Positions 1 to 29,065 of a stretch of 64,000 nucleotides of DNA are shown here, piece after piece; within the stretch, counting starts at the first letter, position 1; each line of letters begins with the position of its first letter. The stretch comes from Tubulanus polymorphus (lineage: Eukaryota; Nemertea; Palaeonemertea; Tubulaniformes; Tubulanidae), in the NCBI RefSeq assembly GCF_964204645.1, contig NC_134034.1, forward strand, positions 3,628,072-3,692,071, given 5' to 3'. The notes beneath the pieces were generated by a model. That model did no database searches and was not told the origin of the DNA. It saw only the letters and a program-made list of their open reading frames with translations. Made by a program: the position numbers and the translations under genes.

Positions 1-1722
1 TTTTCATGTCCAGGAATGTTTAAATGTGGCCTCGAAAATCGATGTATTCCGCAATCCGAAGTTTGTGACGGTGTGGTCAATTGTAAACATACATCTGATG
101 ACGAGGCTTTCTGCAACGTCACGTGTCCCAGGGGCTGTAAATGTCAAGGGCATTTGGTTGATTGTGATGATACTAGTTTAACAACTATAACTAATCTTTT
201 TACGGCATCAACTCGAGTTTTAATTTTGTCAAATACTGGAATTCTTCTAAGCGTGTCAAAGTTTTATTCGTTCGTTTATCTTCGTATGCTCAACATCTCA
301 TCAAATGGATTGTCGTACGTAATGCCAAACTCGTTCTCAAACCTGCATAATCTGCATACGTTAGACCTGACATATAACAACATAACATCACTATCCACAA
401 ATACATTCGCTGGTTTGTATAGTTTGAAATATCTGTTCATAACCGAAAATCCGCTACGTAATTTAGCGGACGATACCTTCCAAGATCTGAAGTCCCTTAA
501 CGATCTCAATCTTCGCGGAATGTCCTTATTAGTGCTCGGTAGAAATATATTTAGAGGTTTATCTGCATTACAGTCGTTGAATATCAGCGATAACAAAATC
601 CACCATATTTCACGATATGCTTTTGCGGGATTACCCGAACTTAGAATACTCGATATGACCAACAACTCTAAATTCCTTTCTGCAGAAAGAAGCGTCTTCG
701 ACAATCTGACATCATTGGTCTCCTTGACGTCTGATGCTTACAAATTCTGCTGCTTAGCGCCAAATGTTGACCAGTGCCTTCCCGAAGCCGATCAATTTTC
801 TTCCTGCTCTGACCTGATGGGTAACACGGTTCTCAAAGCGATCATCTGGGTCATCGCTTCATTCAGTTTCTTTGCCAACAATATCGTTATTTTATTTCGT
901 TTTCGATCAATTCTACTTACCTCAGTAAAGCGTAACATATCTTCCGACATCCTTATCATTAATATCGCGGCTTGTGATTTTCTGATGTCGATTTATCTAT
1001 GTTTGATCGCGGGAGCAGATTACGTTTATAAAGGAATTTATTTCCTACATTCTGAGACATGGACGGACAGCTTATTGTGTAGTTTTGCTGGTGTTATGGT
1101 GACTATTTCCTGTGAAGGCTCATTGACGTTTCTATTTATTCTAACGCGTCATAGATTCTCAAATATCGTTAATCCATTTTCTCGAAGCCCGATTACATCC
1201 CCGAGATACGTGTGCATTATTTGTGTTGTATGTTGGTTATCTATAGGTACAGCTTCTACAATACCGCTGTCCCAATCGACTTACTTCGGGAATAATTTCT
1301 ATGGCACTACTGGAGTTTGTTTACCTATGAATTTGATTTCAATCGATGTCAATGCCTGGCAATATTCATTCGCTATTTTTGCTGTATTCAACTCGGTCAT
1401 ACTTGCTACGATAATGGGGACTTACGCGCAAATGTACAGACTCGTATCCGGAAGCAGGTCTGGTTCGGGTAGAGCTGATCCCACCGAACTGATTTTGGCA
1501 CGCAGGAGTCTGGTTATAAATCTGTGTAATCTTTTTTGCTGGCTGCCGTTAATTACCGTTCAGTTTTGTGCTTTATTTCAGGTAGAAATACCGAATCAGG
1601 TGGCGGCTTGGCTGGCGGTTCTTTTCTTGCCGATCAACTCGTCCCTCAATCCCCTTCTTTACACTATTCTCACTATTGATATGAAATCCATACAGGCAAA
1701 AACTAAACACCTACGACATTGA
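1..1722 (+). CDS. GRL101-like LDLa/LRR seven-helix receptor, copy 1, 3' part only
   Basis: The reading frame is open from base 1, so the gene continues off the left edge. The 573 residues seen contain, in order, one LDLa module (Cys pattern ending in DDEAFC), an LRR N-cap (CPRGCKC), about seven leucine-rich repeats, a Cys-rich C-cap, and a 7TM domain. TM2 has NIAACDF, TM6 has FCWLP and TM7 has NPLLY, followed by a tail of about 20 residues. The architecture matches Lymnaea GRL101 and the relaxin-receptor class of LGRs, so a plasma-membrane GPCR with a large ectodomain is inferred; the ligand is unknown. It aligns without a gap to the end of copy 2 (constant offset 8856), with about eight residue differences, which indicates a recent tandem duplication. 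The last segment lies in one uninterrupted exon. Confidence 0.88.
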   Translation, partial: FSCPGMFKCGLENRCIPQSEVCDGVVNCKHTSDDEAFCNVTCPRGCKCQGHLVDCDDTSLTTITNLFTASTRVLILSNTGILLSVSKFYSFVYLRMLNISSNGLSYVMPNSFSNLHNLHTLDLTYNNITSLSTNTFAGLYSLKYLFITENPLRNLADDTFQDLKSLNDLNLRGMSLLVLGRNIFRGLSALQSLNISDNKIHHISRYAFAGLPELRILDMTNNSKFLSAERSVFDNLTSLVSLTSDAYKFCCLAPNVDQCLPEADQFSSCSDLMGNTVLKAIIWVIASFSFFANNIVILFRFRSILLTSVKRNISSDILIINIAACDFLMSIYLCLIAGADYVYKGIYFLHSETWTDSLLCSFAGVMVTISCEGSLTFLFILTRHRFSNIVNPFSRSPITSPRYVCIICVVCWLSIGTASTIPLSQSTYFGNNFYGTTGVCLPMNLISIDVNAWQYSFAIFAVFNSVILATIMGTYAQMYRLVSGSRSGSGRADPTELILARRSLVINLCNLFCWLPLITVQFCALFQVEIPNQVAAWLAVLFLPINSSLNPLLYTILTIDMKSIQAKTKHLRH

Positions 1723-1771
1723 ATAGACTTACTTGAACTAAAACACGACCATAATGAGTGCCAATCCTTAA

Positions 1772-1777
1772 AATAAA
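1772..1777 (+). terminator. Poly(A) signal of receptor copy 1
   Basis: AATAAA lies 50 bases after the stop codon. It is conserved in copy 2 at 10629, with one inserted base between stop and signal. Confidence 0.6.
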
Positions 1778-2008
1778 CTACGGAATTCTGATACCGACGA
1801 CTCGTGAGGAACGCAAAACCCATTAACCCAAAAGTAATTAACAGGCTACGCGACTCAAATGAAACATGATGACAGTTTGATCTGCAAACGCGATAGTTAT
1901 CAGAAAAAGGGAACGTGCAACGAACCGACTGAAATCTCCGACATTTTATCAGTAAAAGTATAGTCAGAATAGAACGATAATCACACTCAAACGTGGTGAA
2001 CGGATAAT

Positions 2009-2339
2009 AAGATAAAAACCCACTATTTACAGATTAAAAGAATTTAAAAACAAGAATTTATTTAATCAAGCTAAAATATATATAAGACACGACGTTTCGA
2101 TCTCACCCTAAAGATCATCGTCATGCCTTGCCAAACACTAATCATTTACTCACTCACTCACCAATTTACTCAATTAACCTGTTCTCCTCTGTATATACCC
2201 CCATTTTTAGTCTATCTCACACCTGACGATGATCTCTAGGGTGAGATCGAAACGTCGTGTCTTATATATATTTTAGATTGAATAAATAAATTCTTGTTTT
2301 TAAATTCTTTTAATCTGTAAATAGTGGGTTTTTATCTTA
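2009..2339. mobile_element. Foldback element F1, copy 1
   Basis: The inverted arms of about 130 bp begin AAGATAAAAACCCACTATTT on the left and end with its complement on the right. Inside both arms is GAAACGTCGTGTCTTATATA or its complement. The central spacer is about 60-100 bp and contains CACTCACTCACC. No coding capacity. The motif TATAGTCAGAAT occurs on both sides (near 1957 and 2341), which may mark duplicated flanking sequence. A second copy lies at 55026-55229. Confidence 0.75.
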
Positions 2340-2837
2340 CTATAGTCAGAATATTGAAGAAATTTCCGATTGGAAGCAACAGCAGCGCTCGGATGTGATT
2401 GGTCCCAGCGAGAGTATAGTCAAGGAATCCGAAGAAGGCGTGTGTAAGCCGATGACGAGTTCTGGTGGTATAAGTGACGGTTGTAGTGAAATTGTTCACA
2501 GGTTCCAGTGAGGTAACCGCAGTCAACTGATTCATGTTATTATCAGGATGCAATCGTCAGGTCGCGGAATGGTTCAGAAGCGCGCGCGTATATGCATTTT
2601 TTAGAACACCTAAAATCGATATTTTCATAGAAAGATTGGTATTCAGGATATATAGCTCGGAACACAGCGCAATATTTCACATTTCGATGAAGGGTTTTCA
2701 GCTTTTCAGGCTTCTGATAGAAAATCCTTTCAGAAACTCTTACTGGTAAAATCCCATTATCTATCACGTACATCATCATTCGACCGAAATGAGAATGATA
2801 TGAGGGAGGTTACCGTTATAGCGTTTCAGCCCAACAG

Positions 2838-3160
2838 GCCCCTGCCGAGGGGGATTCGGGTTTCAGCGAACGAACCCCCTAAAACTTTCAAAAGTGCCCT
2901 TCGCAAAGCCAGTGTCAAAAAAATGTGGGTCGAGATATTTCGAAATGTGGATACAATATTATGTTTTTTGGACAGTGAAACGTAATTGACCAGTGACGTA
3001 TTATCATCGCTCAGTCGATCAATGACATGTTTTAATGAGACGCTGTTTAAATCAAGTTTAGGTTATCGAAAAAAATTTTAAGATATGTCCTTTTTCAATA
3101 AAAAAGTGCTCCTTTTCGCGTACGTAACAAGGTGCCCTTTGCGTTGAAATCGAACTGCTC
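2838..3160 (-). repeat. Dispersed element D, reverse copy
   Basis: This is similar, in reverse, to sequence at 46195-46475 and 60405-60880. All share a GAACCCCCT / GGGCCTG end, a GTGCCCTTC block and a GGGTC(A/G)AGAT(T/A)TTTC segment. It has no open frame of note. Confidence 0.55.
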
Positions 3161-3425
3161 CTCAAAAAAGCTCGGCACAAAGGCATGAAGAATCGAACTT
3201 GAATTTTTCGAGTAGGCCTACCTACGTAAATTTATACGTTTATTGAAAATGTGGTTTTACAATGACCGATTCTTTAAGTATATATGTAATATGGCTGCCC
3301 AGGAAGTGTCTTCTTGTTCTTCGGACCTCATATAAGTAAGTTTTTTTTTTCATATTAATAAAGAAAGAAACTCGACTAAAACTGAACATAGGTAGCGCTT
3401 GTGCGGAGATCTGTATTTTTTTCAC

Positions 3426-3620
3426 ACCCTTAACCCGCTAAGCGCCACACAGGGCATCGTAAGCCGGTTCGATGTTTCTTTTTTCCCAATGTGGGAGAGA
3501 CCAGAGAAGAACCTTCGACCAAGAAACTCTGTCGCCACCCGGGTTTGAACCCATAAATCCTGGATTGACGAGTTGACGAGACCAGTGACCGGCGGCTTAA
3601 AACACTCGGCCACTGCGCCT
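3426..3620 (-). mobile_element. tRNA-derived SINE
   Basis: On the minus strand the element begins GGCGCAGTGGCCGAGTG (A-box like) and has GGGTTCAAACCCGGGTGG about 70 bases later (perfect B box). The spacing is that of a class II (Ser/Leu-like) tRNA head. The remaining 100 bp, to about 3426, has no tRNA fold, so this reads as a SINE and not a functional tRNA. Confidence 0.65.
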
Positions 3621-4085
3621 CAAGCGCTCGTGTGGGGACCTGTATGGTGGCTAATTCGGGGCATACCAAAAAAAAAAATTCGAGTACAGCTAGAGGTATA
3701 ATTTTTTATTGGTACTTTTTGTGCGATGATTGGTTTTGATTTAGTTCGGTCCACTAGCAATATTTCAGTGACACCCTACTGTTTTGACTGGTAAAATCAT
3801 TAACCTGGGATGCATAAGAGCTTACCGTATTTTACCTTACCGGAATTTTCATATATACATTTTGCCTCAAGGGGGTCAGAAAACGCCCCTATCAAGCTTC
3901 GAATATCAAAAATTAAGACTATTCAAGAATATTCGAGTCATTTCAAGAATTCGGAAATATGCTCGTTTGCCTTCGGCGCTCGACGGATGCGGTGCAAAGT
4001 ATGGCATATAGCGACGCTTGTTTTAATCACGACCCCTCCCCCCTTAAAACGGAATATGGTTTCGTCGCGGGTGATAATATCCAAG

Positions 4086-4192
4086 TGCCAGTTTAATAGA
4101 CTGGTATCAACTTTAAACAAGGGGCTAACTTAATTCATTTTCAGTCAAGTTAACCCCGGGTTAAAGTTAATACCAGTCTATAAAACGGCCCC
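4086..4192. mobile_element. Hairpin element H1, copy 1
   Basis: Arms TAGACTGGTATCAACTTTAA and its near complement flank a loop of about 15 bp (AATTCATTTTCAG region). The right end is TAAAACGGCCCC. It is one of four H1 copies in the window (also 38941, 41703, 49202). Confidence 0.75.
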
Positions 4193-4592
4193 AATATTTT
4201 AATGAAATCTACTGAATTTGAAGGGAATATAGAATATGATTTTGTACGTGTACATCCCAACCATGACCATGGTATATATGGAGGAAAAGAGAGTATTTGC
4301 AATCATTGCAGACAGAAACTTTTTATATTTGGATTATTATTGGACATCGATATAACGACGCATGGAAACATGAAACCGAAAGTAGCTGCTCAAATCGATG
4401 GTTATTCCTGGGAAGTTTGTCGTTTGAGTCAGAGTAAACGCTAATGAGAGAACCGTAAAAAATCTTTCCACGACGAATTCTAAAATTCGTTTCATGAGCA
4501 AGAAATGTAAAATTCTGCATCAGTTATGCATTAGACCTGAAGATCTGCGAACAACCGAGCAAAATATCGTGAATTAATTTAATTGCATTATC

Positions 4593-5801
4593 GTGTTGAT
4601 GTTCGGTATGGAGCAGCGACTGAGAGCGCTGTTTATAGCGTCGCTGATCGTCTGTCAAGTTCGCATCGCACGCGCTGATCGCGCAGACTCTATCGAGGAA
4701 TCGTCTGTGACGGTGAGTTCGTCTTGTAACAACACGTGGTACGCCCTAGACTCTACGTCCGGTTACATCGTTTCACCGAATTATCCGTCGTTAACGCGCG
4801 GCGTTGAATGTCGTTGGTTCATCAACAGTTATTTACCGGGTACTTTTCACGTCCAAGTTTACTACGACATCGAGACGTCAGTATTCTGCAACGGTAACTA
4901 CTTCTACGAAACCGATAACAGATTCTGCGGCGATGGAAAACACGAAATCCGCCGCAACGATTCGATCTCGTTGATGTTGCGGATTGAAGTCGACGCTGCG
5001 CGAGGTAGTCGGGTTTATATCATGTATCGTCATGAAAGAAGCCGATTGAAAATTAGTCACAACTGCAGAAAATATAGACTCAGATTGAATCATATGCAAA
5101 CATCGAAGGGACAGAAATTCAATTTGATATTTGGATCTTGTCAATTGTTCCTGGAATGGATCGGGATGCCTGATGGTTTAGCGATGAATTTAACGTTTGT
5201 CGATTTTGCCTTCTCGTCTAGTTCTCATCAGGTCCCTTTTCGGATTCATGACGGATGGAACAGCAGCAGTGAACCATTAGCTCTCATACGACAACAAACC
5301 GGCCATCCACCTTCATCATTTTATACTAAAACAAACAAAGCTACTTTAGTATCGCAGAAAATTTCTATCAAGTCACAGCTTTTAGTTCAGATATACAAGA
5401 TATCAGATTGGAACGTCTCTCATCCTTTGATTCAGATTTTTCATAATGTGTCGGGAGTGCTCATTCCCGATGACAACAGCTTACACGTAATAACTCGATC
5501 AAAACACTTACACTGCTGGTCTATCACGGTGCAGGTGTTACAGTACGTCGTCTTCAACTGGACACATGATTTCGTCACATCCGGTGACGTCATTGGTGTA
5601 TATAATCTAGAAGGGTTACGTGTTGTAGGAACTGATATTTTACTCGGTTACAACTACCTGGAATCACTGAGTGTCAAATCTGACGGCTTTCTTATTGTAT
5701 TGTGCGTATTAAAGAGAATGTTTCATGAATTCTTGAGTGTAAAAATATATTACCAAATGAAAACAATTTCAATGGCTGATATGAAGGTTAACAATCGTCA
5801 G
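4593..5801 (+). CDS. Receptor copy 2, exon 1: signal peptide and CUB
   Basis: The start is the first of two close Met codons (4593, 4608), followed by a hydrophobic stretch LFIASLIVCQV. The CUB domain has SGYIVSPNYPSL, typical of the first strands. The exon ends CAG|GTGAGT in phase 0; the next in-frame stop lies only in the intron. Confidence 0.85.
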
Positions 5802-8800
5802 GTGAGTAACAGCGAAGCTAGTTTCAACTATTCAAAAATTATGTCAATTACATAACACGAAGTTAATGGCTTATTTACGTTTAGGTATCCGAGAGTCGAT
5901 TAAGATATATGACGCCGAACACATTGTTCCCAAGACGAAGGGACCCGAAGACCACGATGAATTATAGCATCACTAAACACGAGTTTCGATGGAAAGTTAA
6001 CATTTATGAAGAGACCTTAGAACTAAAAGTTTCATCAGAGAACTGCGATCGAGCCGGATTTTACATATTTGACGGCGGTAATTTCACGGCTAGACGCTAC
6101 GGTCCGTATTGTCCTCGTTTACGGACATACGACCGTAACGTCGTCAGCCTTGTTTCATCAGGTGGACCGGTTACTGTAGTAGCATACGCTTACAACTGGG
6201 ATGATCAGTTAGCAGTCGATACGAAGTCATTTCTCAGATTTCGTCCAACTGACTGCGACGGTTATGTCTTAAAGGAGGGGGAACTTCAGATATCCATGAC
6301 GTCACAGTGTCTCGTGATTACCCCTGAAAACCGACGCCTTCCTTTGAAAAACATTTATATATTGTCGGAACACGAGTATCAAATTGACCGGTGTTTTCCG
6401 AATCATTTATCATTCGGGTCATGTAGCAGGTATTTGAGAGCGAGTAGTCAGTTTCTCGATAACGGTCTCATCGTATTAAACACGGTGAAAATACGATTCG
6501 CGGATCCATTCTGGAGAATTCCATTAATTGTTAAACTACGACGTAAATGTCAGCTATCAAAGAAACCCGAGACAGAATTACTTGAATTGTCCATATTGAA
6601 AGATGAATGCGGGATTGTGCAATCGCTAAATTACCCAGGATCTTCTGAATATCAATTTCAACCGTTATATTTCAAGTTTTTCCAAGCGTCAAAACGTGAG
6701 AAATTTCCATATTTCAGATTTGTTATCAAACACATTGAAAGGACACCGTGCTTTAAATCATCTTCCAAAGACAAAGATCCAATTTTTTACAAACAAAGGA
6801 TTGAGTCGAACGCCAAAATTCAACACGAAAATCAAATATGCGACGAAAATGCGATACCGGGAATCGTATTTTATAGTCTTATCGATTACAACCTCTGGTT
6901 CGAGGTGAAAAGCTTTGTCCCCAGTTTTCGAGTACAATACATGTTAGAAAAGTCGTTACCGGTGAAACTGATTGAAAATATCTGTAAATCGGGATTTCTA
7001 GATTCGGGGATTTCCTGCGTAAAATACATCCGAGATGAACGCCTGAATTGGGAGAATGCTGAACTGTACTGCAGACAAAAGTATGCGGGCCATCTACTCA
7101 GTATCAACTCGGAGCAGGAAATGATTGCTATTAAAACCTTATTCGCTACAAAACTTCTTAAAACTGCATATTCACAGAAAGCGCTTATAATGATGATCGG
7201 ATTAAAACTGCAGGTAAATGTTATGATATCTTTGTTCAAAATCATACCTTGGATATCCTTGATTGTGGAAAAATTGACTTTTTATCTTAAAATTCCAATT
7301 TTACGTTTTAGTTTAGTAGATACACGTGGACTGATGGCAAACCACTGAGCTACACAGAGTGGTATAAGCCTACAAATAACGACACGATACCAGACGTTAT
7401 TCGAGGATTGATATCTCCTCTAAGAAAACAACCGGTAAATGATGTAGATATGCCGTGTACGGCGATGATACTGAATAATCCACGAGGATCGGCGAACTGG
7501 GTTCGATTTCCCTGCAAAATTGAAGAGGTTCACACGAGTTTCATTTGTGAATCGGAAAAAGTCGACATCGAAAATACAGAAAAATGGACAAATAGAAACA
7601 AAACAGTTTTAACATCAAATTCAACAAAAAATGACACATTTGTTTTACGAGAAAATGCGTTTAGATACGCTGGTTTCGACGGATCGAACTGTACGATTGG
7701 TTGGGTAAGCATAAATAGAAGATGTTATCAAATACTGACAGACTGGAGTAAACATCGAGGTTTAGATATAAAAACTGCGACAGAGATGTGTCATGAAATC
7801 CGGGGGGAAATAGGCACTGTGATAACCAGTTACTCAGAAACTATGAATTTAATAAGAACATTTCACTATCAGAATCAATATAGTTCTATACTAACGATTT
7901 CTTCTAATGACACACTTCTAGTTATAAAGCCAATAATCACTAGAGATGAAATTACTTATATTCGATCAGTTAAATGGATAGTAAAACAGTTCGATAATGC
8001 GACAGATATGGCGCATTCTGTTGTGTGTTCATACAATGTTACTGGCGAACAGTTAGCTTCTATTAGCGGTTGTAAATCGTGGCAGTTTAAATGTAGCGAC
8101 CAAAGATGTATCAGCGATCATCGCGTATGTGATACCAGACACGACTGTCAGCACGGCGAAGATGAACTCAATTGTACGAATATAAGTTTATACAGCCAGT
8201 TTAAATGCTATGATGGTCAGCAGGTCATATCAATTAGTGGTTTCTGTGATTTCATACAGGACTGTGTGGATGGTTCTGATGAAAACTCATGTTTTCATCC
8301 CCCGTGTTCGTCCGAACAATTTCGCTGCAAAAGTGGTCAATGTGTCGGTAGGTCTAACCGATGTGACGGAGTTGGCGATTGTTATGACGCTTCGGATGAA
8401 ACGGAATGCACTGCCCAACTGTGTCAAGGGTTTCTATGTATCAGTGGAGACTGTATCAGTTCTCAATTGTATCAGGATGGAGTCGTGGATTGCAGTGGAA
8501 GCCTTGAGGAAGACGAATTAGTAACATCAACTAATGTTACAGTGAATCCCACAGTTCAGTGCAATAATGTGAACCAATGTACAACTAACTTCACAAATCT
8601 TTGTACAGAATCCGATGAACAAAGATGTTCTTTCGATTCTCCTCATTGTTACTCTAGACGCCACAGATGTATTTTAGAAAGAATGACAAACGGTTACCCA
8701 GTTTGTAGATATCTTGAGCACGTATTGAGATGTGAAGAATTTGAATGTCCAGCTGGTACTGTAAAATGCCCAGCATCGTACTGTATACCAATCAGACAGG

Positions 8801-10578
8801 TGTGCGATGGTCAATCAGATTGTCCTAATTCAGAAGACGAACAAAACTGCGGGACATTTTCATGTCCAGGAATGTTTAAATGTGGCCTCGAAAATCGATG
8901 TATTCCGCAATCCGAAGTTTGTGACGGTGTGGTCAATTGTAAACATACATCTGATGACGAGGCTTTCTGCAACGTCACGTGTCCCAGGGGCTGTAAATGT
9001 CAAGGGCATTTGGTTGATTGTGATGATACTAGTTTAACAACTATTACTAATCTTTTTACGGCATCAACTCGAGTTTTAATTTTGTCAAATAATGGAATTC
9101 TTCTAAGCGTGTCAAAGTTTTCTTCGTTCGTTTATCTTCGTATGCTCAACATCTCATCCAATGGATTGTCGTACGTAATGCCAAACTCGTTCTCAAATCT
9201 GCATAATCTGCGTACGTTAGACCTGACATATAACAACATAACATCACTATCCACAAATACATTCGCTGGTTTGTATAGTTTGAAATATCTGTTCATAACC
9301 GAAAATCCGCTACGTAATTTAGCGGACGATACCTTCCAAGATCTGAAGTCCCTTAACGATCTCAATCTTCGCGGAATGTCCTTATTAGTGCTCGGTAGAA
9401 ATATATTTAGAGGTTTATCTGCATTACAGTCGTTGAATATCAGCGATAACAAAATGCACCATATTTCACGATATGCTTTTGCGGGATTACCCGAACTTAG
9501 AATACTCGATATGACCAACAACTCTAAATTCCTTTCTGCAGAAAGAAGCGTCTTCGACAATCTGACATCATTGGTCTCCTTGACGTCTGATGCTTACAAA
9601 TTCTGCTGCTTAGCGCCAAATGTTGACCAGTGCCTTCCCGAAGCCGATCAATTTTCTTCCTGCTCTGACCTGATGGGTAACACGGTTCTCAAAGCGATCA
9701 TCTGGGTCATCGCTTCATTCAGTTTCTTTGCCAACAATATCGTTATTTTATTTCGTTTTCGATCAATTCTACTTACCTCAGTAAAGCGTAACATATCTTC
9801 CGACATCCTTATCATTAATATCGCGGCTTGTGATTTTCTGATGTCGATTTATCTATTTTTGATCGCGGGAGCAGATTACGTTTATAAAGGAATTTATTTC
9901 CTACATTCTGAGACATGGACGGACAGCTTATTGTGTAGTTTTGCTGGCGTTATGGTGACTATTTCCTGTGAAGGCTCATTGACGTTTCTATTTATTCTAA
10001 CGCGTCATAGATTCTCAAATATCGTTAATCCATTTTCTGGAAGCCCGATTACATCCCCGAGATACGTGTGCATTATTTGTGTTGTATGTTGGTTATCTAT
10101 AGGTACAGCTTCTACAATACCGCTGTCCCAATCGACTTACTTCGGGAATAATTTCTATGGCACTACTGGAGTTTGTTTACCTATGAATTTGATTTCAATC
10201 GATGTCAATGCCTGGCAATATTCATTCGCTATTTTTGCTGTATTCAACTCGGTCATACTTGCTACGATAATGGGGACTTACGCGCAAATGTACAGACTCG
10301 TATCCGGAAGCAGGTCTGGTTCGGGTAGAGCTGATCCCACCGAACTGATTTTGGCACGCAGGAGTCTGGTTATAAATCTGTGTAATCTTTTTTGCTGGCT
10401 GCCTTTAATTACCGTTCAGTTTTGTGCGTTATTTCAGGTAGAAATACCGAATCAGGTGGCGGCTTGGCTGGCGGTTCTTTTCTTGCCGATCAACTCGTCC
10501 CTCAATCCCCTTCTTTACACCATTCTAACTATTGATGTGAAATCCATACAGGCAAAAACAAAACGCCTACGACATTGA
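4593..10578 (+). CDS. CUB / C-type lectin / LDLa / LRR seven-helix receptor, copy 2 (gene span, 3 exons)
   Basis: Joining 4593-5801, 5885-7213 and 7312-10578 keeps phase 0 at both junctions and gives about 1934 aa. Visible domains: signal peptide (1-29), CUB (about 45-155), a weakly CUB-like region to about 770, C-type lectin domain 1 (about 781-926, with YTWTDGKPL and FICE), C-type lectin-like domain 2 (about 973-1086), five clear and one or two degenerate LDLa modules (about 1100-1400), LRR N-cap (1403), LRRs, Cys-rich cap, and a 7TM core (about 1637-1934) with NPLLY in TM7. The TM3 end reads LTRHRF where rhodopsin-family receptors usually have DRY or ERW. The LDLa-LRR-7TM part is GRL101-like. 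The N-terminal CUB and lectin domains suggest binding of carbohydrate or protein ligands; that is inference. The C-tail is very short. The gene sits head-to-tail after copy 1. Confidence 0.88.
5885..7213 (+). CDS. Receptor copy 2, exon 2: middle region and first half of lectin domain 1
   Basis: The acceptor is TTTACGTTTAG before 5885 and the donor is CTGCAG|GTAAAT after 7213, phase 0 at both ends. The C-terminal third starts a C-type lectin fold (CVKYIRDERLNWENAELYC). The first 350 residues have paired cysteines but only weak similarity to known domains. Confidence 0.82.
7312..10578 (+). CDS. Receptor copy 2, exon 3: rest of lectin 1, lectin 2, LDLa, LRR, 7TM
   Basis: The acceptor TTACGTTTTAG before 7312 restores phase 0 and completes lectin domain 1 (WTDG motif, then FICE). 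One long exon then encodes everything to the stop at 10576-10578. LDLa modules show the calcium-binding acidic ends DGSDENSC, DASDETEC and NSEDEQNC. Confidence 0.88.
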   Translation, partial: FSRYTWTDGKPLSYTEWYKPTNNDTIPDVIRGLISPLRKQPVNDVDMPCTAMILNNPRGSANWVRFPCKIEEVHTSFICESEKVDIENTEKWTNRNKTVLTSNSTKNDTFVLRENAFRYAGFDGSNCTIGWVSINRRCYQILTDWSKHRGLDIKTATEMCHEIRGEIGTVITSYSETMNLIRTFHYQNQYSSILTISSNDTLLVIKPIITRDEITYIRSVKWIVKQFDNATDMAHSVVCSYNVTGEQLASISGCKSWQFKCSDQRCISDHRVCDTRHDCQHGEDELNCTNISLYSQFKCYDGQQVISISGFCDFIQDCVDGSDENSCFHPPCSSEQFRCKSGQCVGRSNRCDGVGDCYDASDETECTAQLCQGFLCISGDCISSQLYQDGVVDCSGSLEEDELVTSTNVTVNPTVQCNNVNQCTTNFTNLCTESDEQRCSFDSPHCYSRRHRCILERMTNGYPVCRYLEHVLRCEEFECPAGTVKCPASYCIPIRQVCDGQSDCPNSEDEQNCGTFSCPGMFKCGLENRCIPQSEVCDGVVNCKHTSDDEAFCNVTCPRGCKCQGHLVDCDDTSLTTITNLFTASTRVLILSNNGILLSVSKFSSFVYLRMLNISSNGLSYVMPNSFSNLHNLRTLDLTYNNITSLSTNTFAGLYSLKYLFITENPLRNLADDTFQDLKSLNDLNLRGMSLLVLGRNIFRGLSALQSLNISDNKMHHISRYAFAGLPELRILDMTNNSKFLSAERSVFDNLTSLVSLTSDAYKFCCLAPNVDQCLPEADQFSSCSDLMGNTVLKAIIWVIASFSFFANNIVILFRFRSILLTSVKRNISSDILIINIAACDFLMSIYLFLIAGADYVYKGIYFLHSETWTDSLLCSFAGVMVTISCEGSLTFLFILTRHRFSNIVNPFSGSPITSPRYVCIICVVCWLSIGTASTIPLSQSTYFGNNFYGTTGVCLPMNLISIDVNAWQYSFAIFAVFNSVILATIMGTYAQMYRLVSGSRSGSGRADPTELILARRSLVINLCNLFCWLPLITVQFCALFQVEIPNQVAAWLAVLFLPINSSLNPLLYTILTIDVKSIQAKTKRLRH

Positions 10579-12985: not shown

Positions 12986-15900
12986 GTAAGTATTAATTTC
13001 AATAATTCAGCCTTATAGAAAACGCGCCAAATTCTCTACAGACAAGGTCAAGGATGGATGGATAGTTACCTAGTCTAATATCTAGCCGTTGTTTCTCAAA
13101 GAACGACGGGGGTCGTAAAAGTTAAGGGGACCGTAACAACGTCTGGTATTCAGACTAGATAGTTACCTAAATTTAATTGTTGGTTAATCGCAATTCGATG
13201 GGCTTCAGGTAGCAACTGTCTTTAGTGGTATGAAAATCAGTGGCGTTGGAACTGTAGGGACTGAAGCGCAGCAATAATTTACTGAATGAAGTTTTTTTTC
13301 TTTCTAAATTCTGTTTTCGACGAAACTGAAGTAAATTTGCCGCGGCAAGATTAGAACCTGTCGAAAATATAATCGGCTATTCTAGGCCGCGGCAATCAAA
13401 AATTGCTTCCAACGCGTCTGCAAATATCCAATCGAAAAACTTAAATTACTGTCTGGTTACCGACTCGGCCCTCTGGTTTATTTTTCAACAGTTCGAAAAA
13501 CTTAGAAAAATAAAATTCAACTTGAACTTAAACTCGCATTCTATTGCTCCGTATAACAACAAAACATCGAAATGCAATTTGTGAAAAATCAGGATTTGAA
13601 CCCGAAGTGCTAAACGGACGGGTCTACCTGCGACGACCCGACTGTATTTTAGGTGTCACTAATGGTCTCATCGAAACGATCAATACGTCGAGGACTTAAA
13701 TGAAGTAGATTGAATTGATCAACAGTTTAAGAGCTCAAGAAGAGCGATGACTTATAAAAATTATGTGACATTTCCTGATGACGACTTTAAGCGAGGTAGG
13801 CTGTTCGAAATTAATGGCCCATTTAAAGAATTTGCCTAAATTTTCTAAACTAGTTTCGGTGAAATCGACGTTAGAATCATTTGTGTAGCGTATAATAGGC
13901 CTACGCTATTATACGAATGTTTGATTTCACAGCCTGCGCCACAGGTTTACAAATCGATAAATTCAATCTATACGACATAAACAGATGTTGTCGAAAGTTT
14001 TCCGTATCAATTGACTTGAAAGGTTTACAGTTGAACAAACATCGCTCGTTGTAACATTGATACGCGGCCTTCTAGGCCTTTAAAAAGACTGATTACACAT
14101 TTGATTATCAGGCAGCAAGCTTTCAAAAACTGATCGCGCACGCCCTTCGCACACGCATTTGCAACTACACACGAGACATTTTAAATCGAAAATGAACTAA
14201 AATCACCGGGTAGTAGACATTTCATCAGCTCAAAAGCTGATCCAGTGTACATGCCTCATAGGCCTATGTGTTAAGGACTTCGCCTCAGACATTTTCAATT
14301 GAAAATGAACTACAAACACCAGACATAAGACATTTTATCAGCAAATTTTCAAAAACTGATCATCCAGTGTTTTCAATAAGAAATTAACAAGCCAGGTCCT
14401 CTTGAAAAACAGGAGGGTCCCATAATATGTCACAGCCCCTGAAACGAAAGCTTGTTTGAAGTAACAGGCGGGTCCTTTACAAACGACAGACGGGTCTGGG
14501 ACCTGGCTCTTATTGAAAACACTGGTCATCCACACTTAACATGGACTTCACCTGAGGTATTTTTAATTGAAAATGAACTACAAACACCAGACATAAGACA
14601 TTTTAGGCTATCAGCAAATTTTCAAAAACTGATCATCCACACTAACATGGACTTCACCTGAGGTATTTTTAATTGAAAATGAACTACAAACACCAGACAT
14701 AAGACATTTTAGGCTATCAGCAAATTTTCAAAAACTGATCATCCACACTAACATGGACTTCACCTGAGGTATTTTTAATTGAAAATGAACTACAAACACC
14801 AGACATAAGACATTTTAGGCTATCAGCAAATTTTCAAAAACTGATCATCCACACTTAACATGGACTTCACCTGAGGTATTTTTAATTGAAAATGAACTAC
14901 AAACACCAGACATTAGACATTTTATCGGCCCACTTCTAAAAACTGATCCAGTACACGTTTCACATGTGTTCAGGACTTCTCGTGAGATATTAACAGCTGA
15001 AAATGAACTACAAACACCGGGCATTGATTAGCCATTCGGCCCTACATCAGCAAATGTTCAAAAACTGATCGTCCACATTTCACACGCGTTCAGAACTTCA
15101 CCCGAGACCATTTTTAATTGAAAAATGAATTACAAAGCACGAGATGCTAGATATTTTAAAAGCACACTTTCAAAAACGGATCTTTCATACTTCACACTAA
15201 TATGGTCAGTGTCTGAAGGGCACTGCGCAGTTCCTGACAGCAGGTTGATGCGTAGTCGCAACGCAGTGATTTAAGATCACGGCCAATCCGCTAATTTTTG
15301 ACAGGTTCTAATATTGCCGCTGCGAATTCACTTCGAACACCATTCAGTAAATTATTACTGAACGGCTCTCACCGCCGCAGTCGCTACGGTTCCAACACCG
15401 CTGCGATGTAAATGGCTTATATTTGAGGTCGAGTTATCCTTTTAATATGTAACATATATACGTAGCCCCCTCCCGCGCGGTGTATACGCGATAAATAGAT
15501 TCGTTTCCCGAAGTTAATACTCCCGCGAGTCGTCAGTCGAGAAAAATCTATACACGTGAATACGATTCCCCGATTGCTCGGTAGCTCGACAGCTGGCACA
15601 TTGACACCGACGACGACGTGGGGTTGTTTTCACTACTCTCTCACTGTTTGTAACACGCGGCGGACTGGATTCGGCGCGCCACGACTACTAAACGTCTGTT
15701 TCGACTTTTCGAGAGAGAGGACTTCGGGTGCCGTAACTCAGTCAGGTTTGGTGTAATACACATCTGATTTCGGTGTTATGGTCAGCATAAATTGGCCGCT
15801 GACGGATCTCCATTTTTACTTCAGGTGAATCAAGAGAAAATTGACTCCGTTTCTTGAAATGAATTGAGTTTACGATTATTTTTCTGACCCCCTAAATACC

Positions 15901-24900: not shown

Positions 24901-27233
24901 AGGCCCAAACTATTAACATTTTGACCAAAAGGAAGTAAGTTCTTCAAAAAAATTCTGTTTTTTGAAAATATTTTCCGACTTTTTCAATATGGGACGTTTT
25001 CATCCCTTCATCCCGCGCGCGTAGCCAGTTTAGTCTTCGGGAGTGGAAAGGGGGATTTTCACGAAAGTGGGCTTTTCGTAAGGACACCGAAGGGGTGTAG
25101 TTTAAGTCAGTGGTCCTGGGAGTGCTCCCCCAGAAATTGTTTGAAAATTGGATACAATTCACAACTTCTAGCATATGAAAGTGAAAGTGGAAGAAAACTT
25201 TGCTTCTTTCCCGCAATTTGGCCTCAAATGTGATGAGTTTCCAAGATGTTTTGAATAAGAGCTAAAGAAAAAGAGAGTCAACAATGAGCAAATTGAAAAA
25301 AATTTATGATCAAAATCTCTTCAGGCGGATATGAGGGCGAACCCCCTCGATACGGGCCTGGACATCATGAATTGAATATCAATTTTGACTTGTATAAAAG
25401 ACCGAAGAGATTGAATATTTTACAACTACAATTCTTCTTGATCAGTTTGGATATTTATGAAATTAGCTATTTCACTCAGTCTAGCATTGTCTTGATCAAT
25501 TTTATGATGTCGAAAGCTGGATTGCACTAAGTCAGCCATATTTCTGAATTGTTCAAAGATCAAATCACTACTACCTAATATTCATTTTGATGATGTCATA
25601 GGGGGGGATTTATTGAGGCAGTCATCATTTTCTGCAGGTTTCCAGCAAAGATTTAAGTCCTTAAACTTTTCAGTTGTAATTCAATACATGTATATGAATG
25701 ACAGAAAATTTGGCAAATTGTGGAAATTGTCCCGAGTTGGAGTCCCTGTTAATTGAAAAAAGTGCGCTTACATTTTTGTAGATATTCATGTATAACAGTC
25801 AATTTTCGGAACTACGTCGGGAACGGGCGTGTCTGGATACAAGCGGTAGCCGCGAAAATCAAGATGTCGATTTGGTCGAATGTCATCGTCAAGGAGGACA
25901 TCAGAAATGGGTGTTCAATAAGGTACAATCTATTCTCTAACGTAGATTCAATCCCAATTTAACCCTTTCAGTGCTGGCTAATTAATACCCTATAGTGCTG
26001 AAGATAATCTGAAAATTCTGAAAAATTTCCCCCCTACTGTGTTGAATAACGGGAATAGCACTATAGTGCGTCTACACCATGGTGCGGTATTTCGTTGGTT
26101 ACTAATATTTCACTATGTTTGACAGGTGCTGCCATCATTCTACAATAATTAGTAATTACTAATTAAATCAATACACCCCAGTGCGGTGTACTGGCAAAAT
26201 CTATCACTGATTCGTACACCACACTGCGGTGTAGAGTGTAGACGCACTGAAAGGGTTAAACTTCGAACTCGGTTCTCAGGTTGTGTGGGTTTAATTTGAC
26301 ACTGAACCCAGTTCCACGGTTCTATAAGTTTTATTTAAATCTGAACCCAGTTCCCAGTTGTGTGGGTTAGATTTTATTCTGAACTCAGTTCCACTGTTAT
26401 GTAGGTTTAATTTCATTCTGAACCCAGTTCCACAGTTGTATGAATCTTAGAACAGTTTCACAGTTGAGCAGGTTAACTCTGATTCCGGGTTTAATTCAAA
26501 GATTTTGAAAACTTCGCCCCAAATGCATATATATTGTATAACGGGCATAGCAAAGTACGTCTACATTGCGGTGCAGGGTATCTTCAGTTACCAACATTTC
26601 ACTATGTTTGACAGGAGCTGCCTTCTTTTAATCCTTTCAGTGCTGGCTAATTAATACCCTACCTATAGTGCTGAAGATAATTTGAAAATTCTGAAAAATT
26701 TCACCCTAGCGTGTTGAATAACGGGAATAGCACTATAGTGTGTCTACACCCTGGCGTGGTGTATCATTACTTACTTATATTTCACTATGTTTGACAGGTG
26801 CTGCCATCTTTCAAGAGAGATAATTAGTAATTACTAATTGAATCAATACACCGCAGTGCGGTGTACTAGCAAAATCCATCACTGATTTGTACACCGCACT
26901 GCAGTGTAGACGCACTGAAAGGGTTAATAGACATAAAAACTAATTGCAAATTACATCCATACACCTTGCATAGTCGATCAATTTATACACCGCACTGCAG
27001 TGTACGTAGATGCGCTCAAACGGTTGATTCCATCAAACGTGCATTGAATTGTATTGTTTTATTATTTACAGGAATCTGGCGGAACTCTGGTTCATTCTTC
27101 CGGTAAATGTTTGGATGCGTTCGGTTTGAACAGCAACGAAAACGTGATCGTGAGGACGTGCGATGGCTCGCCGACTCAGCAGTGGGAATTTCAATCTTAC
27201 AACGAGAATCCTTTGATTCGCAACGTACTATAA
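12630..27233 (+). CDS. Polypeptide N-acetylgalactosaminyltransferase, GALNT11-like (gene span)
   Basis: This Golgi type II membrane enzyme starts mucin-type O-glycosylation by moving GalNAc from UDP-GalNAc to Ser/Thr. Ten shared exons (19520-19686, 20602-20779, 21464-21667, 22325-22442, 22796-22883, 22984-23081, 23683-23817, 24513-24620, 25782-25922, 27072-27233) follow either of two first exons (12630-12985 or 16899-17236). All junctions keep phase and give about 584 or 578 aa. Residues for the shorter form: TM anchor near 18-33, DSH metal-binding motif at 219-221, the WGGEN acceptor motif at 325, and a ricin-type lectin from about 443 with CLDL, CLDT and CLDA plus QKW and QQW. The stretch [20 protein letters not shown] favours GALNT11 / Drosophila pgant35A over other subfamilies; the subfamily call is from memory of family patterns. 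Confidence 0.92.
13222..13420 (+). repeat. Dispersed repeat E, copy 1
   Basis: It starts GGCGTTGGAACTGTAGGGAC and contains AATAATTTACTGAAT and GCCGCGGCAA. The same order of blocks occurs at 44622-44765 and reversed at 15290-15402. Confidence 0.55.
14281..15230. repeat. S satellite array, 106-bp period
   Basis: Units contain AAAAACTGATCATCCACACT, ATTGAAAATGAACTACAAAC and CACCAGACATAAGACATTTT. Three adjacent units at 14581, 14687 and 14793 are spaced exactly 106 bp and nearly identical; outer units are more diverged. A CAGTG-ended element interrupts the array at 14366-14525. Confidence 0.85.
14366..14525. mobile_element. CAGTG-ended element inserted in the S array
   Basis: Ends CAGTGTTTTCAATAAG and CTTATTGAAAACACTG are exact inverted repeats. 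The insertion splits the S-unit sequence CTGATCATCCACACTT and duplicates about 8 bp of it (TGATCATC / TGGTCATC). The CAGTG end and duplication size are like hAT elements. Non-autonomous; a second copy lies at 62711-62875 in the other orientation. Confidence 0.7.
16347..16634. mobile_element. TTAA MITE, copy 1
   Basis: TTAA precedes CCCTTTCAGTGCTGAC on the left and follows GCGCTGAAAGGG on the right. The body has three ACACCGC-type palindromic blocks and the line TATGTTTGACAGGTGCTGCC in related copies. TTAA duplications with a CCCTTT end suggest piggyBac-type mobilisation. Confidence 0.8.
16899..17236 (+). CDS. GALNT first exon 1b (alternative)
   Basis: The ATG at 16899 leads a cytoplasmic tail and anchor ([14 protein letters not shown]), then a stem matching exon 1a ([34 protein letters not shown]). 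The donor CA|GTAAGT is in phase 2. The codon split by the junction becomes Gln here and Leu when exon 1a is used. Confidence 0.87.
17286..17610. repeat. Degenerate TTAA MITE relatives, two tandem units
   Basis: Two units of about 165 bp each carry ACACCGCAGTGCGGCGTA-like palindromes and TTTTAGCGCCACCTGGTGT. The first begins TTAACCCTCTCAATGC, a diverged form of the MITE end. Confidence 0.55.
17691..17980. repeat. 86-bp tandem repeat
   Basis: ACTGCATTC recurs at 17691, 17777, 17866 and 17952 (spacings 86, 89, 86). Units contain GGTTACTGACCGGTCCAGTA, itself nearly palindromic around ACCGGT, and GGCTCAGCCATCAGGCTAG. Confidence 0.85.
19135..19494. mobile_element. TTAA MITE, copy 2 (abuts GALNT exon 2 acceptor)
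   Basis: It has the same ends as copy 1, with a duplicated internal TACACCGCA segment that makes it longer. The right TTAA ends 25 bases upstream of exon 2, so the element may supply part of the branch-site region. Confidence 0.75.
19520..19686 (+). CDS. GALNT exon 2
   Basis: It encodes the start of the GT-A catalytic domain ([20 protein letters not shown] then [10 protein letters not shown]). Acceptor TATTTTTAG, donor AAAG|GTAAAT; enters in phase 2 and leaves in phase 1. Confidence 0.92.
19705..19934. mobile_element. TTAA MITE, copy 3
   Basis: It starts TTAACGCTTTCAGTACTGAC 18 bases after the exon 2 donor and ends GCACTGAAAGGGTTAA. It is in the same orientation as copy 2. Confidence 0.75.
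20602..20779 (+). CDS. GALNT exon 3 (DSH motif)
   Basis: It encodes [19 protein letters not shown] and the catalytic metal-binding DSH followed by CEANVQW. Acceptor TTTTTGCAG, donor ATG|GTAGGT, phase 2 out. Confidence 0.92.
20815..21230. repeat. K repeat array, about 80-bp period
   Basis: About five units contain CTAGTGTGCAGTAGGACA, a CAACTACTGCAGCAA-like block and ATCCACCAGGTG. The same unit occurs reversed at 39530-39870 and twice at 57275-57425. Confidence 0.7.
21464..21667 (+). CDS. GALNT exon 4
   Basis: It encodes [20 protein letters not shown] and [13 protein letters not shown], a conserved catalytic-domain segment. Acceptor TCGTTATAG, donor CAG|GTAAGA, phase 2 both ends. Confidence 0.92.
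21668..22324. other. GALNT intron 4
   Basis: No gene or clear repeat family was recognised in most of this intron. A diverged S-like fragment (ATCTGGTGTTTAGTTCATTT) lies at 22240-22275. Confidence 0.45.
22325..22442 (+). CDS. GALNT exon 5 (WGGEN motif)
   Basis: It encodes [20 protein letters not shown] and [13 protein letters not shown], the Gal/GalNAc-T signature. Acceptor ACAATCAG, donor AGG|GTAAGT, phase 0 out. Confidence 0.94.
22475..22560. mobile_element. TTAA MITE fragment
   Basis: Only the right third remains (GCGGTGTACTAGCAAAATCC to CACTGAAAGGG), and the terminal TTAA is altered. Confidence 0.6.
22796..22883 (+). CDS. GALNT exon 6
   Basis: It encodes [20 protein letters not shown], highly conserved in the family. 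Acceptor CATGTTTTAG, donor CAG|GTAGCG, phase 1 out. Confidence 0.92.
22984..23081 (+). CDS. GALNT exon 7
   Basis: It encodes [20 protein letters not shown]. Acceptor TCCGCGCAG, donor GTC|GTAAGT, phase 0 out. Confidence 0.92.
23683..23817 (+). CDS. GALNT exon 8
   Basis: It encodes the end of the catalytic domain ([20 protein letters not shown]) and the linker to the lectin. A long pyrimidine tract precedes the acceptor; donor ATG|GTAAGT. Confidence 0.92.
23818..24512. other. GALNT intron 8
   Basis: No gene. The segment 23930-24130 (GGATCCGCCCTGCCC, GGGGGTGGATCTAGC) resembles the 'GGATCCGCCCC' phrases seen at 33060, 43800 and 20090, so it is probably an old dispersed repeat. Confidence 0.4.
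24513..24620 (+). CDS. GALNT exon 9, start of ricin-type lectin
   Basis: It encodes [17 protein letters not shown] and [12 protein letters not shown] (alpha repeat). Acceptor GATTTCAG, donor CAG|GTAAAA, phase 0. Confidence 0.9.
24783..25370. repeat. Two dispersed repeats in GALNT intron 9
   Basis: 24783-24890 (GGAGCACTCTGTAGTTAGGA) is repeated reversed at 36947-37050. 25095-25370 (GGGAGTGCTCC, CAATTTGGCCTCA, ending GAACCCCCTCGATACGGGCC) resembles 55605-55785. No coding features. Confidence 0.5.
25782..25922 (+). CDS. GALNT exon 10, lectin middle repeat
   Basis: It encodes [20 protein letters not shown] and HQKWVFNK (CLD and QxW motifs). Acceptor TTTTTGTAG, donor AAG|GTACAA, phase 0. Confidence 0.9.
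25959..26259. mobile_element. TTAA MITE, copy 4
   Basis: TTAACCCTTTCAGTGCTGGC at the left and CGCACTGAAAGGGTTAA at the right bound a full-length copy 37 bases after exon 10. Confidence 0.85.
26260..26480. repeat. Tandem half-units of hairpin H4
   Basis: CTGAACCCAGTTCCAC-type segments recur about every 60-65 bp, four times, each followed by a GTGTGGGTTTAATTT-like stretch. They look like a tandem expansion of one H4 arm. Confidence 0.6.
26628..26927. mobile_element. TTAA MITE, copy 5
   Basis: Full-length copy from TTAATCCTTTCAGTGCTGGC to CGCACTGAAAGGGTTAA. Partial copies flank it at about 26500-26627 and 26930-27025. Confidence 0.85.
27072..27233 (+). CDS. GALNT exon 11, C-terminus
   Basis: It encodes the last lectin repeat ([15 protein letters not shown], then QQWEFQ) and stops at TAA 27231-27233. 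Acceptor ATTTACAG, phase 0. Confidence 0.92.
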   Translation, partial: ESGGTLVHSSGKCLDAFGLNSNENVIVRTCDGSPTQQWEFQSYNENPLIRNVL

Positions 27234-28399: not shown

Positions 28400-29065
28400 C
28401 GTTTCAGACATTCTCCGTCGTAGCATAAAATGTCTAATATCTGGTGTTTGTAGTTTATTTTCAATTACAAATGCCTCAGATGAAGCACTGAACACATGTG
28501 AAGTGTGGACGATCAGTTTTTGAAAGTGTGCTGATAAAATGTCCAATGTCTGCTGTTAGTAGTTTATTTTCAATAAGAAATGTCTCAAGTGAAGCACTGA
28601 ACACATGTGAAGTGTGGACGATCAGTTTTTGAAAGTCAGCTGATAAAATGTCTAATATCCGGTGTTTGTAGTTCATTTTCAATCAAAATGTCTCAGGTGA
28701 AGCACTGAACACATACAATGTGGGGAAGATTAGTTTTTGAAATTCAGCCGATAAAGTGTCTTATTTCTAGTGTTTGTAATTCATTTTCGAACAAAAATAT
28801 TTCACTTGAAGCACTGAACACATGGGATTTGGGAACAACCAGTTTTGAAAGTGCGCTGATAAAATGCCTAATGTCTGTGTTCAGAAATGTTAAACTCGAA
28901 TTTTTGGTGAAATTGACATTGGCTACTTCATGGTTTCAATGAGGACAACAATTCTTTTTCGTGAAACTGGGTCCTGGTGTTCGTTACAAACACCAGACAT
29001 TAGACATTTTATCAGCGCAATATCGATCAATTTCAATTGAAAGTCATGAACAAATGCGAAGTCTG
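28400..29065. repeat. S satellite array, about 109-bp period, reverse orientation
   Basis: About five units contain GGACGATCAGTTTTTGAAAG, AATGTCTAATATCTGGTGTT and GAAGCACTGAACACATGTGA. GATCAG occurs at 28511 and 28620. The orientation is opposite to the array at 14.3 kb. An H2-like fragment (TTTTTGGTGAAATTGACATT to CGTGAAACTGGGTCC) lies inside at 28895-28976. Confidence 0.8.

What the first reader, a model, noticed from the sequence alone, without database searches (positions are those of the whole stretch)
4593..10578. One receptor gene combines CUB, two C-type lectin domains, LDLa, LRR and a 7TM core
Known GRL101-type receptors have LDLa, LRR and 7TM. Here an in-phase three-exon model adds a signal peptide, a CUB domain and two lectin-like domains in front. 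Such a protein could couple carbohydrate or pattern binding directly to G-protein signalling, as an innate sensor or gamete/hormone receptor.
Basis: partly seen in the sequence, partly recalled or inferred. Interest (0 to 1): 0.75.

Follow-up and report, generated by a model that had tools for sequence, protein, structure and literature searches.

The report
Hundreds-strong lectin-fronted GRL101-type receptor family
The gene is real and encodes one cell-surface receptor that joins CUB and lectin-like recognition modules to a hormone-receptor-like signalling core, and it is one of about 300 near-relatives in this invertebrate genome, probably a recognition repertoire for microbes, other individuals or environmental molecules.

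Summary
Exons 4608-5801, 5885-7213 and 7312-10578 join in phase 0 into one 1,929-residue receptor: signal peptide, CUB region, two C-type-lectin-like domains (CTLDs), LDLa, LRR, 7TM. A two-gene reading is very unlikely: CTLD1 is split by intron 2 and scores far better joined, and 76 of 86 exact CUB tags have an exact CTLD1 tag 2-6 kb downstream (control 1 of 86).

It is not one gene. Three 30-nt tags (CUB, CTLD1, TM7) occur 313, 308 and 316 times in the source genome (reversed tags: none): a family of about 300, largely in tandem arrays. Divergent relatives (35-39% identical in LRR-7TM) share the architecture, so it predates the expansion.

The core is closest to RXFP1 among solved structures and fits GRL101-type LGRs. 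A CTLD-LDL-LRR-7TM GRL101 cluster is already in print from Biomphalaria; I did not find the CUB region, second CTLD, this copy number or the loss of acidic residue 3.49 in my searches. The source is a lophotrochozoan, species unknown. Ligand and function are inferred; canonical sugar-binding motifs are absent from CTLD1, positive selection was not detected, and no transcripts were available.

The parts
4608..5801 (+). exon 1 (398 aa): start codon, signal peptide, CUB domain and further cysteine-rich, CUB-like sequence
   Evidence: open frame, GT donor after 5801; shared ATG; 17-member alignment A1; CUB
4608..4676 (+). signal peptide, by eye only (no program run)
   Evidence: hydrophobic stretch LFIASLIVC after the shared Met
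4725..5042 (+). CUB domain (approximate limits)
   Evidence: 17 of 17 members scanned match PF00431 at E<=1; family profile v cubilin 3kq4 4.4e-10, MASP-1 5.8e-6
5802..5884 (+). intron 1, 83 nt, phase 0
5885..7213 (+). exon 2 (443 aa): cysteine-rich, CUB-like region of uncertain domain count, then first half of CTLD1 (from about 6983)
   Evidence: alignment A2; first-half Lectin_C matches
7214..7311 (+). intron 2, 98 nt, phase 0, inside CTLD1; a matching position (between IGL and YTW/FQW) fits the divergent C1 and C7 paralogs
   Evidence: C1/C7 sites judged by eye
7312..10578 (+). exon 3 (1088 aa plus stop): second half of CTLD1, CTLD2, LDLa, LRR, 7TM
7312..7551 (+). second half of CTLD1 (to FICE)
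   Evidence: joined CTLD1 Lectin_C E 1.9e-7; coordinate
7690..8034 (+). CTLD2, divergent (approximate limits)
   Evidence: profile v 'yolk sac IgY receptor' 1.3e-4 and NKG2-D 1.9e-4; weak UL45/Xlink matches
8071..8970 (+). LDLa array, 6 Pfam stretches (approximate limits)
   Evidence: PF00057 2.6e-30; coordinates
8980..9609 (+). LRR N-cap, LRRs and RXFP1-like hinge (YKFCC)
   Evidence: LRR_8 3.9e-28; family profile v RXFP1
9766..10518 (+). rhodopsin-type 7TM core; TM3 ends R-H-R-F, TM7 reads NPLLY
   Evidence: 7tm_1 2.3e-19, profile 9-260/260
1..1719 (+). 3' end (LDLa tail, LRR, 7TM) of a tandem copy whose 5' part lies upstream of the window
   Evidence: 98.8% DNA identity over 1815 nt; whole unit 98.1% over 6683 nt

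Best explanation
One gene encodes a GRL101-type (type-C2-like) LGR with a long recognition front. It belongs to a family of about 300 that spread largely by tandem duplication. Most likely mechanism: the receptor sits in the plasma membrane of an exposed cell (blood cell, epithelium or sensory cell). The distal CUB/CTLD modules, which include the least constrained parts, bind macromolecular ligands such as surface proteins of microbes, parasites or other individuals. Binding is relayed through LDLa/LRR/hinge to a well conserved 7TM core that couples to one common G-protein route. Shown here: gene structure, domain content, copy number, the gradient of constraint, relation to RXFP1 and to divergent same-architecture paralogs. 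Inferred: cell type, ligands, G-protein coupling, and that the role is recognition (immune rather than chemosensory by a small margin, on the Biomphalaria precedent).
For: Structure. One unit genome-wide: tag counts 313/308/316 with 0 reversed-tag matches; 76 of 86 exact CUB tags checked are followed by an exact CTLD1 tag 2-6 kb on, 1 of 86 in the other direction. Mostly intact: 78 of 81 scored LRR-7TM matches have no stop (640 candidates). Core: RXFP1 4e-90 across LRR, hinge and 7TM. Constraint gradient: median pairwise dN/dS 0.17 (7TM), 0.18 (LDLa), 0.25 (CTLD1), 0.26 (LRR) against 0.44-0.47 in exon 1, exon 2 before CTLD1, and CTLD2 (18 sequences, pairs with dS 0.05-1.5); parsimony counts on 18 of 26 models agree (0.22-0.38 against 0.45-0.63). 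Same architecture in divergent relatives with CUB at 47.4 and 36.2 bits. Precedent: CTL-LDL-LRR-7TM GRL101-like cluster in the SudRes2 resistance region (PMC12297450, passages).
Against: No transcript, protein or ligand data. No sign of positive selection: sites at p<0.05 number 0, 0, 0, 0, 1, 0, 1, 1 in the eight regions, and no 50-codon window exceeds 1 in a close array (highest 0.84), so relaxed constraint would also explain the gradient. The nearly identical window/L001 pair gives ratios of 0.93 (exon 1) and 1.08 (LDLa) on dS of only 0.01-0.02. D/E3.49 of the DRY motif is replaced by H, Q or Y in 25 of 25 models where TM3 was found (of 26), so G-protein coupling is not assured. CTLD1 lacks canonical calcium/sugar motifs. 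CUB in the window copy alone is below cut-off.
Confidence: 0.5

Rival explanations
1. The family is a chemosensory repertoire: receptors on sensory cells read waterborne or surface-bound proteins and other macromolecules (food, mates, settlement cues), with few receptors per cell.
For: Large tandem families of intact GPCRs are typical of chemoreception (established knowledge); less constrained front with conserved core; a GRL101-like gene is more expressed in starfish sensory tentacles than tube feet (PMC6267866, passages).
Against: The front is CUB/CTLD/LDLa, more usual for protein or pattern binding; no expression data; the lectin-bearing GRL101 cluster that I found in print is tied to parasite resistance.
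Confidence: 0.35
2. They are peptide-hormone receptors: GRL101 binds an insulin/IGF-like peptide through the LRRs, as Veenstra proposes.
For: LRR, hinge and 7TM resemble RXFP1; the proposal is in PMC8286064 (12 of 22 passages seen).
Against: About 300 copies with changing front modules; the ambulacrarians in that paper have one ortholog each.
Confidence: 0.08
3. Two separate genes lie side by side: a secreted CUB/lectin protein ending before 7312, and an LDLa-LRR-7TM receptor.
For: The exon 2 frame stays open through intron 2 to 7348, so an unspliced ending is possible on paper; no transcripts.
Against: CTLD1 is complete only across the splice (18.0 to 32.2 bits); an intron 2 was modelled in 17 of 17 fetched paralogs, phase 0 in 15, and at the matching place in divergent ones (by eye); 76 of 86 CUB tags have their CTLD1 tag downstream. 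Exon 3 begins in the middle of CTLD1.
Confidence: 0.03
4. The copy number is mostly passive: recent segmental duplication and perhaps assembly duplication of a functionally single receptor type, with little selection for diversity. Not exclusive of the other readings.
For: Four-tag blocks with spacings equal to within 1 nt at C6:19.817-19.852 and 20.049-20.085 Mb and equal-scoring loci on C8; no positive selection; some broken copies: L035 and 3 of 81, and an interrupted copy in L041.
Against: Apart from L001, the modelled copies differ from the window by 20-39% in exon 1 and 25-50% in exon 2 yet remain mostly open and constrained.
Confidence: 0.15

Closest known systems
GRL101-like CTL-LDL-LRR-7TM receptors of the Biomphalaria sudanica SudRes2 region (PMC12297450)
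   Same: CTLD, LDLa, LRR and rhodopsin-type 7TM in one protein; tandem cluster of paralogs; the authors also stress the N-terminal CTL as unique among GRL101
   Different: 12 genes in SudRes2 (ten with all domains) against tag counts of 308-316 here; the main text has 0 occurrences of CUB; a second CTLD is not described in the passages I saw. Sequences could not be compared directly
Lymnaea GRL101 / type C2 LGRs (arthropod LGR5)
   Same: Multiple LDLa plus LRR plus type-C LGR 7TM
   Different: CTLD and CUB in front; expanded family; acidic 3.49 lost. Classic GRL101 layout taken from passages of PMC4079206 and PMC8286064 and recall
RXFP1/RXFP2 (type C1 LGRs)
   Same: Best solved-structure match across LRR, hinge and 7TM (4e-90)
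   Different: RXFP1 has one LDLa and a longer LRR domain and no CUB or CTLD (recalled)
ADGRG6/GPR126 (recalled)
   Same: CUB joined to a 7TM receptor
   Different: Adhesion class with GAIN domain, different 7TM family; no LDLa-LRR
Sea urchin surreal-GPCR and vertebrate V2R expansions (recalled)
   Same: Large GPCR families
   Different: Different ectodomains or none

Membership tests
GRL101-type / type C2 LGR | rhodopsin-type 7TM closest to LGRs | tested here: met
   7tm_1 2.3e-19; best PDB match of the family profile is RXFP1, with FSHR and LHCGR also in the list; only solved structures were compared
GRL101-type / type C2 LGR | LRR block before the 7TM | tested here: met
   LRR_8 3.9e-28
GRL101-type / type C2 LGR | multiple LDLa domains (definition in PMC4079206) | tested here: met
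   6 LDLa stretches, 2.6e-30
GRL101-type / type C2 LGR | falls with GRL101 rather than C1 receptors in a tree | not tested
   no GRL101 or other animal LGR sequences in the collections used
RXFP type C1 LGR | single LDLa, relaxin-type ectodomain (recalled) | tested here: not met
   6 LDLa stretches plus CUB and CTLDs
CTL-bearing GRL101-like (Biomphalaria SudRes2 kind) | CTLD + LDLa + LRR + 7TM in one protein | tested here: met
   homology to the snail proteins not testable here
Canonical sugar-binding C-type lectin | EPN/QPD and WND calcium-site motifs (recalled) | tested here: not met
   CTLD1: no EPN or QPD in 22 of 22 models where the first pattern was found, W-V-R at WND in 23 of 23 where the second was found, of 26
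CUB domain | match to CUB family profiles | tested here: met
   window copy below cut-off, but 17 of 17 members at E<=1, best 3.6e-7; cubilin 4.4e-10; divergent paralogs 2.7e-12 and 8.4e-9
Canonical class A GPCR | D/E-R-Y at the end of TM3 | tested here: not met
   [HQY]-R-[FY] in 25 of 25 models where TM3 was found, of 26; D-R-F or D-R-V in divergent paralogs L038, L039, L040
Canonical class A GPCR | NPxxY in TM7 | tested here: met
   NPLLY invariant in the 15 rows of A4; exact NSSLNP..Y pattern in 22 of 26 models, two of the four misses being cut off by the fetched piece

The most novel reading that the evidence does not exclude
A lophotrochozoan genome carries a repertoire of about 300 receptors in which variable CUB/lectin-like recognition heads are fused to a well conserved G-protein-coupled core with an altered TM3 switch: a GPCR-based recognition system (immune or self/non-self) comparable in size to large TLR, NLR or olfactory repertoires, built on an architecture older than its expansion.
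Probability: 0.4. Interest if true: 0.85.

Novelty: new variant of a known kind. Interest (0 to 1): 0.62.

Why it matters
Most large animal pattern-recognition repertoires are known to signal through TIR, NACHT or tyrosine-kinase routes (established knowledge). A family of about 300 genes that ties CUB/lectin modules straight to a type-C LGR core would be a different way to build a large recognition repertoire. Together with the Biomphalaria resistance region, it would make the open question 'what do GRL101-type receptors bind?' testable in a natural library of variants on one conserved core.

Tried and rejected
Two-gene model: rejected on the split CTLD1, the recurrent intron and the co-travelling tags. 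Canonical sugar binding by CTLD1: not supported. Positive selection: looked for and not found. Synonymous change is lower in conserved domains; gene conversion and misalignment of variable parts could both cause this, so I draw nothing from it. Structure prediction on the window's CTLD2 and exon 1 as single sequences gave mean pLDDT 32.9 and 28.9 and was discarded; no fold search was run. I did not hand paralog alignments to that tool, because its stated list of allowed sources does not name genome-fetch loci. Homology to the Biomphalaria genes could not be tested. Literature: nine searches; in the listings I saw (one search shows 17 of 18 papers, one search shows 25 of 73) no title or abstract describes a CUB-CTLD-LDLa-LRR-7TM family or a GRL101-type expansion of this size; only open-licence PMC papers are held. 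The one paper with all five terms (Xenoturbella genome, PMC11521371, passages) mentions C-type lectin and GPCR genus-specific groups and a GRL-101 clade, not this architecture; its CUB hits are DOI strings.

Limits and rows dropped: one search scored 42 of 776 candidates and did not list the window's own locus, although the query came from it. A1 leaves out L013; A2 leaves out L003, L013, L017; A4 leaves out L001, L007, L014. One search used 18 of 26 models (dropped L001, L003, L007, L013, L014, L017, L031, L035). One search used 8 array copies and left L031 out of the ratios. One search tested 86 of the 100 CUB tags listed, of 313 counted. Junctions of L003, L013, L017 and L031 came out at other phases and are unsure; the splice search rejects junctions with stops, so openness near junctions is partly by construction.
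Full report
OBSERVATION. The three exons are open and join in phase 0 through GT...AG introns of 83 and 98 nt. 4593 is a GTG; the ATG shared with the paralogs is at window 4608. The protein has a hydrophobic leader, a CUB region, CTLD1, CTLD2, LDLa, LRR and 7TM. Pfam on separate exons gives CUB 0.0069 (17.1 bits, cut-off 21.4) in exon 1, half a Lectin_C at 18.0 bits in exon 2, and LDLa 2.6e-30, LRR_8 3.9e-28, 7tm_1 2.3e-19 in exon 3. The joined CTLD1 rises to 32.2 bits, E 1.9e-7, so the splice at 7213/7312 completes a domain.

A FAMILY, NOT A SINGLE GENE. A neighbouring copy, 98.1% identical over 6683 nt, starts upstream and ends at window 1-1719. A 1,096-residue N-terminal query found 107 exon matches on seven contigs other than the window's (42 of 776 candidates scored; the window's own locus was not listed). 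A 532-residue LRR-7TM query found 81 matches at 74-100% identity (81 of 640 candidates scored), 3 of them with a stop. To count without that limit I used three 30-nt tags from the alignment with up to 3 mismatches: CUB 313, CTLD1 308, TM7 316, reversed controls 0 each. Among 86 exact CUB tags that could be checked on the printed lists, 76 have an exact CTLD1 tag 2-6 kb downstream on the same strand; in the other direction 1 of 86. The ten without one may have a CTLD1 tag with mismatches, which those lists do not show. The counts may include broken copies and assembly or segmental duplicates: a four-tag block on C6 repeats with spacings equal to within 1 nt, and C8 holds equal-scoring loci. On C9, L041 holds an interrupted exon 3 followed by an extra fragment of its 7TM end.

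GENE STRUCTURE IN PARALOGS. Seventeen fetched copies all show the three exons: intron 1 is phase 0 in 16 of 17 models and intron 2 in 15 of 17; 14 reach a stop at the expected end and 3 run off the fetched piece. Of eight more from one C12 array, 7 are open and L035 has a stop in exon 2. Four junctions are unsure.

DOMAINS BY PROFILE. Exon 1: 17 of 17 members match CUB at E <= 1, best 3.6e-7; profile v cubilin 4.4e-10 and MASP-1 5.8e-6. CTLD1: 14 of 15 exon-2 members match the first half of Lectin_C at E <= 1, best 0.0043; the exon-2 profile hits snake-venom lectin-like chains at 1.6e-4. CTLD2: PDB lectin-like chains 1.3e-4 and 1.9e-4, little in Pfam. LRR-hinge-7TM: RXFP1 4e-90. Exon 2 contains CUB-like stretches by eye (C..AGFYIFDG; CG..QSPNYP); no profile confirmed them.

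ANCESTRY. Divergent genes on C1 and C7 match each other at 45-50% in LRR-7TM, and the C1 gene matches expanded-family members at 35-39%. On both, an upstream exon carries CUB at 47.4 and 36.2 bits; the last exon carries the CTLD1 rest, a CTLD2-like stretch by eye, LDLa, LRR and 7TM. Their CTLD1 intron lies at the matching place (sites judged by eye). The family's exon-1 and exon-2 profiles do not recognise the divergent upstream exons (nothing above the inclusion threshold), so that part is shared in kind and order but not alignable here. These relatives end TM3 with V-D-R-F or V-D-R-V; the expanded family reads R-[HQY]-R-[FY].

EVOLUTION. Constraint is strong in 7TM, LDLa, CTLD1 and LRR and weaker in exon 1, exon 2 and CTLD2. 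No region and no window exceeds 1, and three sites in all reach p<0.05; single pairs exceed 1 only where dS is about 0.1 or less. This fits 'variable front, conserved core' but does not show diversifying selection.

SOURCE. The 267.8-Mb genome has a compact Hox cluster with Lox5-, Lox4-, Lox2- and Post2-type homeodomains, so it is a lophotrochozoan; the species is unknown.

COMPARISON. Type C2 LGRs are GRL101 homologs, LGRs with multiple LDLa (PMC4079206 and PMC11863921, passages). Biomphalaria sudanica SudRes2 holds 12 GRL101-like genes, ten with LRR, LDL and CTL, in a region associated with schistosome resistance; the authors call the CTL unique to these genes and report RNA support for 11 of 12 (PMC12297450, passages). 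The strongest resistance variants there lie in a neighbouring Zn-RING-IAP gene, so the receptors are not proven causal. The present family adds CUB, a second CTLD, far higher copy number and loss of acidic 3.49. Veenstra proposes IGF as the GRL101 ligand and finds one ortholog per ambulacrarian species studied (PMC8286064, passages).

MECHANISM. Inferred: heads of CUB/CTLD bind macromolecules, probably proteins rather than calcium-dependent sugars; LDLa-LRR-hinge relays to a shared 7TM core with R3.50 and NPxxY kept. Immune or self/non-self recognition is slightly favoured over chemoreception on the Biomphalaria precedent alone. Nothing here measures expression, ligand or coupling.

VERDICT. 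Observation confirmed and enlarged; interpretation partly supported; a new variant of a known kind with unusual scale.

Noticed in passing
window 52010-53783 and 56055-56874: Two satellite-like tandem arrays with repeat offsets of about 122 and 85 bp in the self-comparison.
   Followed up: no
window 2004-2343: An inverted repeat with 120-nt arms, 97% complementary, 100 nt apart, between the two tandem receptor copies.
   Followed up: no
window 14513-15182, 25958-26927, 28425-28881 and others: Dispersed and local repeats shared across the window.
   Followed up: no
G000 C6:5.32-5.63 Mb (L018-L026, L029): Compact, same-strand run of ten Hox-type homeodomains including Lox5-, Lox4-, Lox2- and Post2-like ones.
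   Followed up: partly
L041 (G000 C9:2796200-2802200): An interrupted receptor exon 3 followed about 2.7 kb later by an extra fragment holding only the last part of the 7TM exon; a few other C9 TM7-tag pairs have a similar spacing.
   Followed up: partly
G000 C6:19.817-19.852 and 20.049-20.085 Mb: Four CUB tags with spacings equal to within 1 nt in both blocks: recent segmental duplication or assembly redundancy.
   Followed up: no
L042 about 143-1470: A reverse-transcriptase-like frame next to the divergent C1 receptor gene (named by eye).
   Followed up: no
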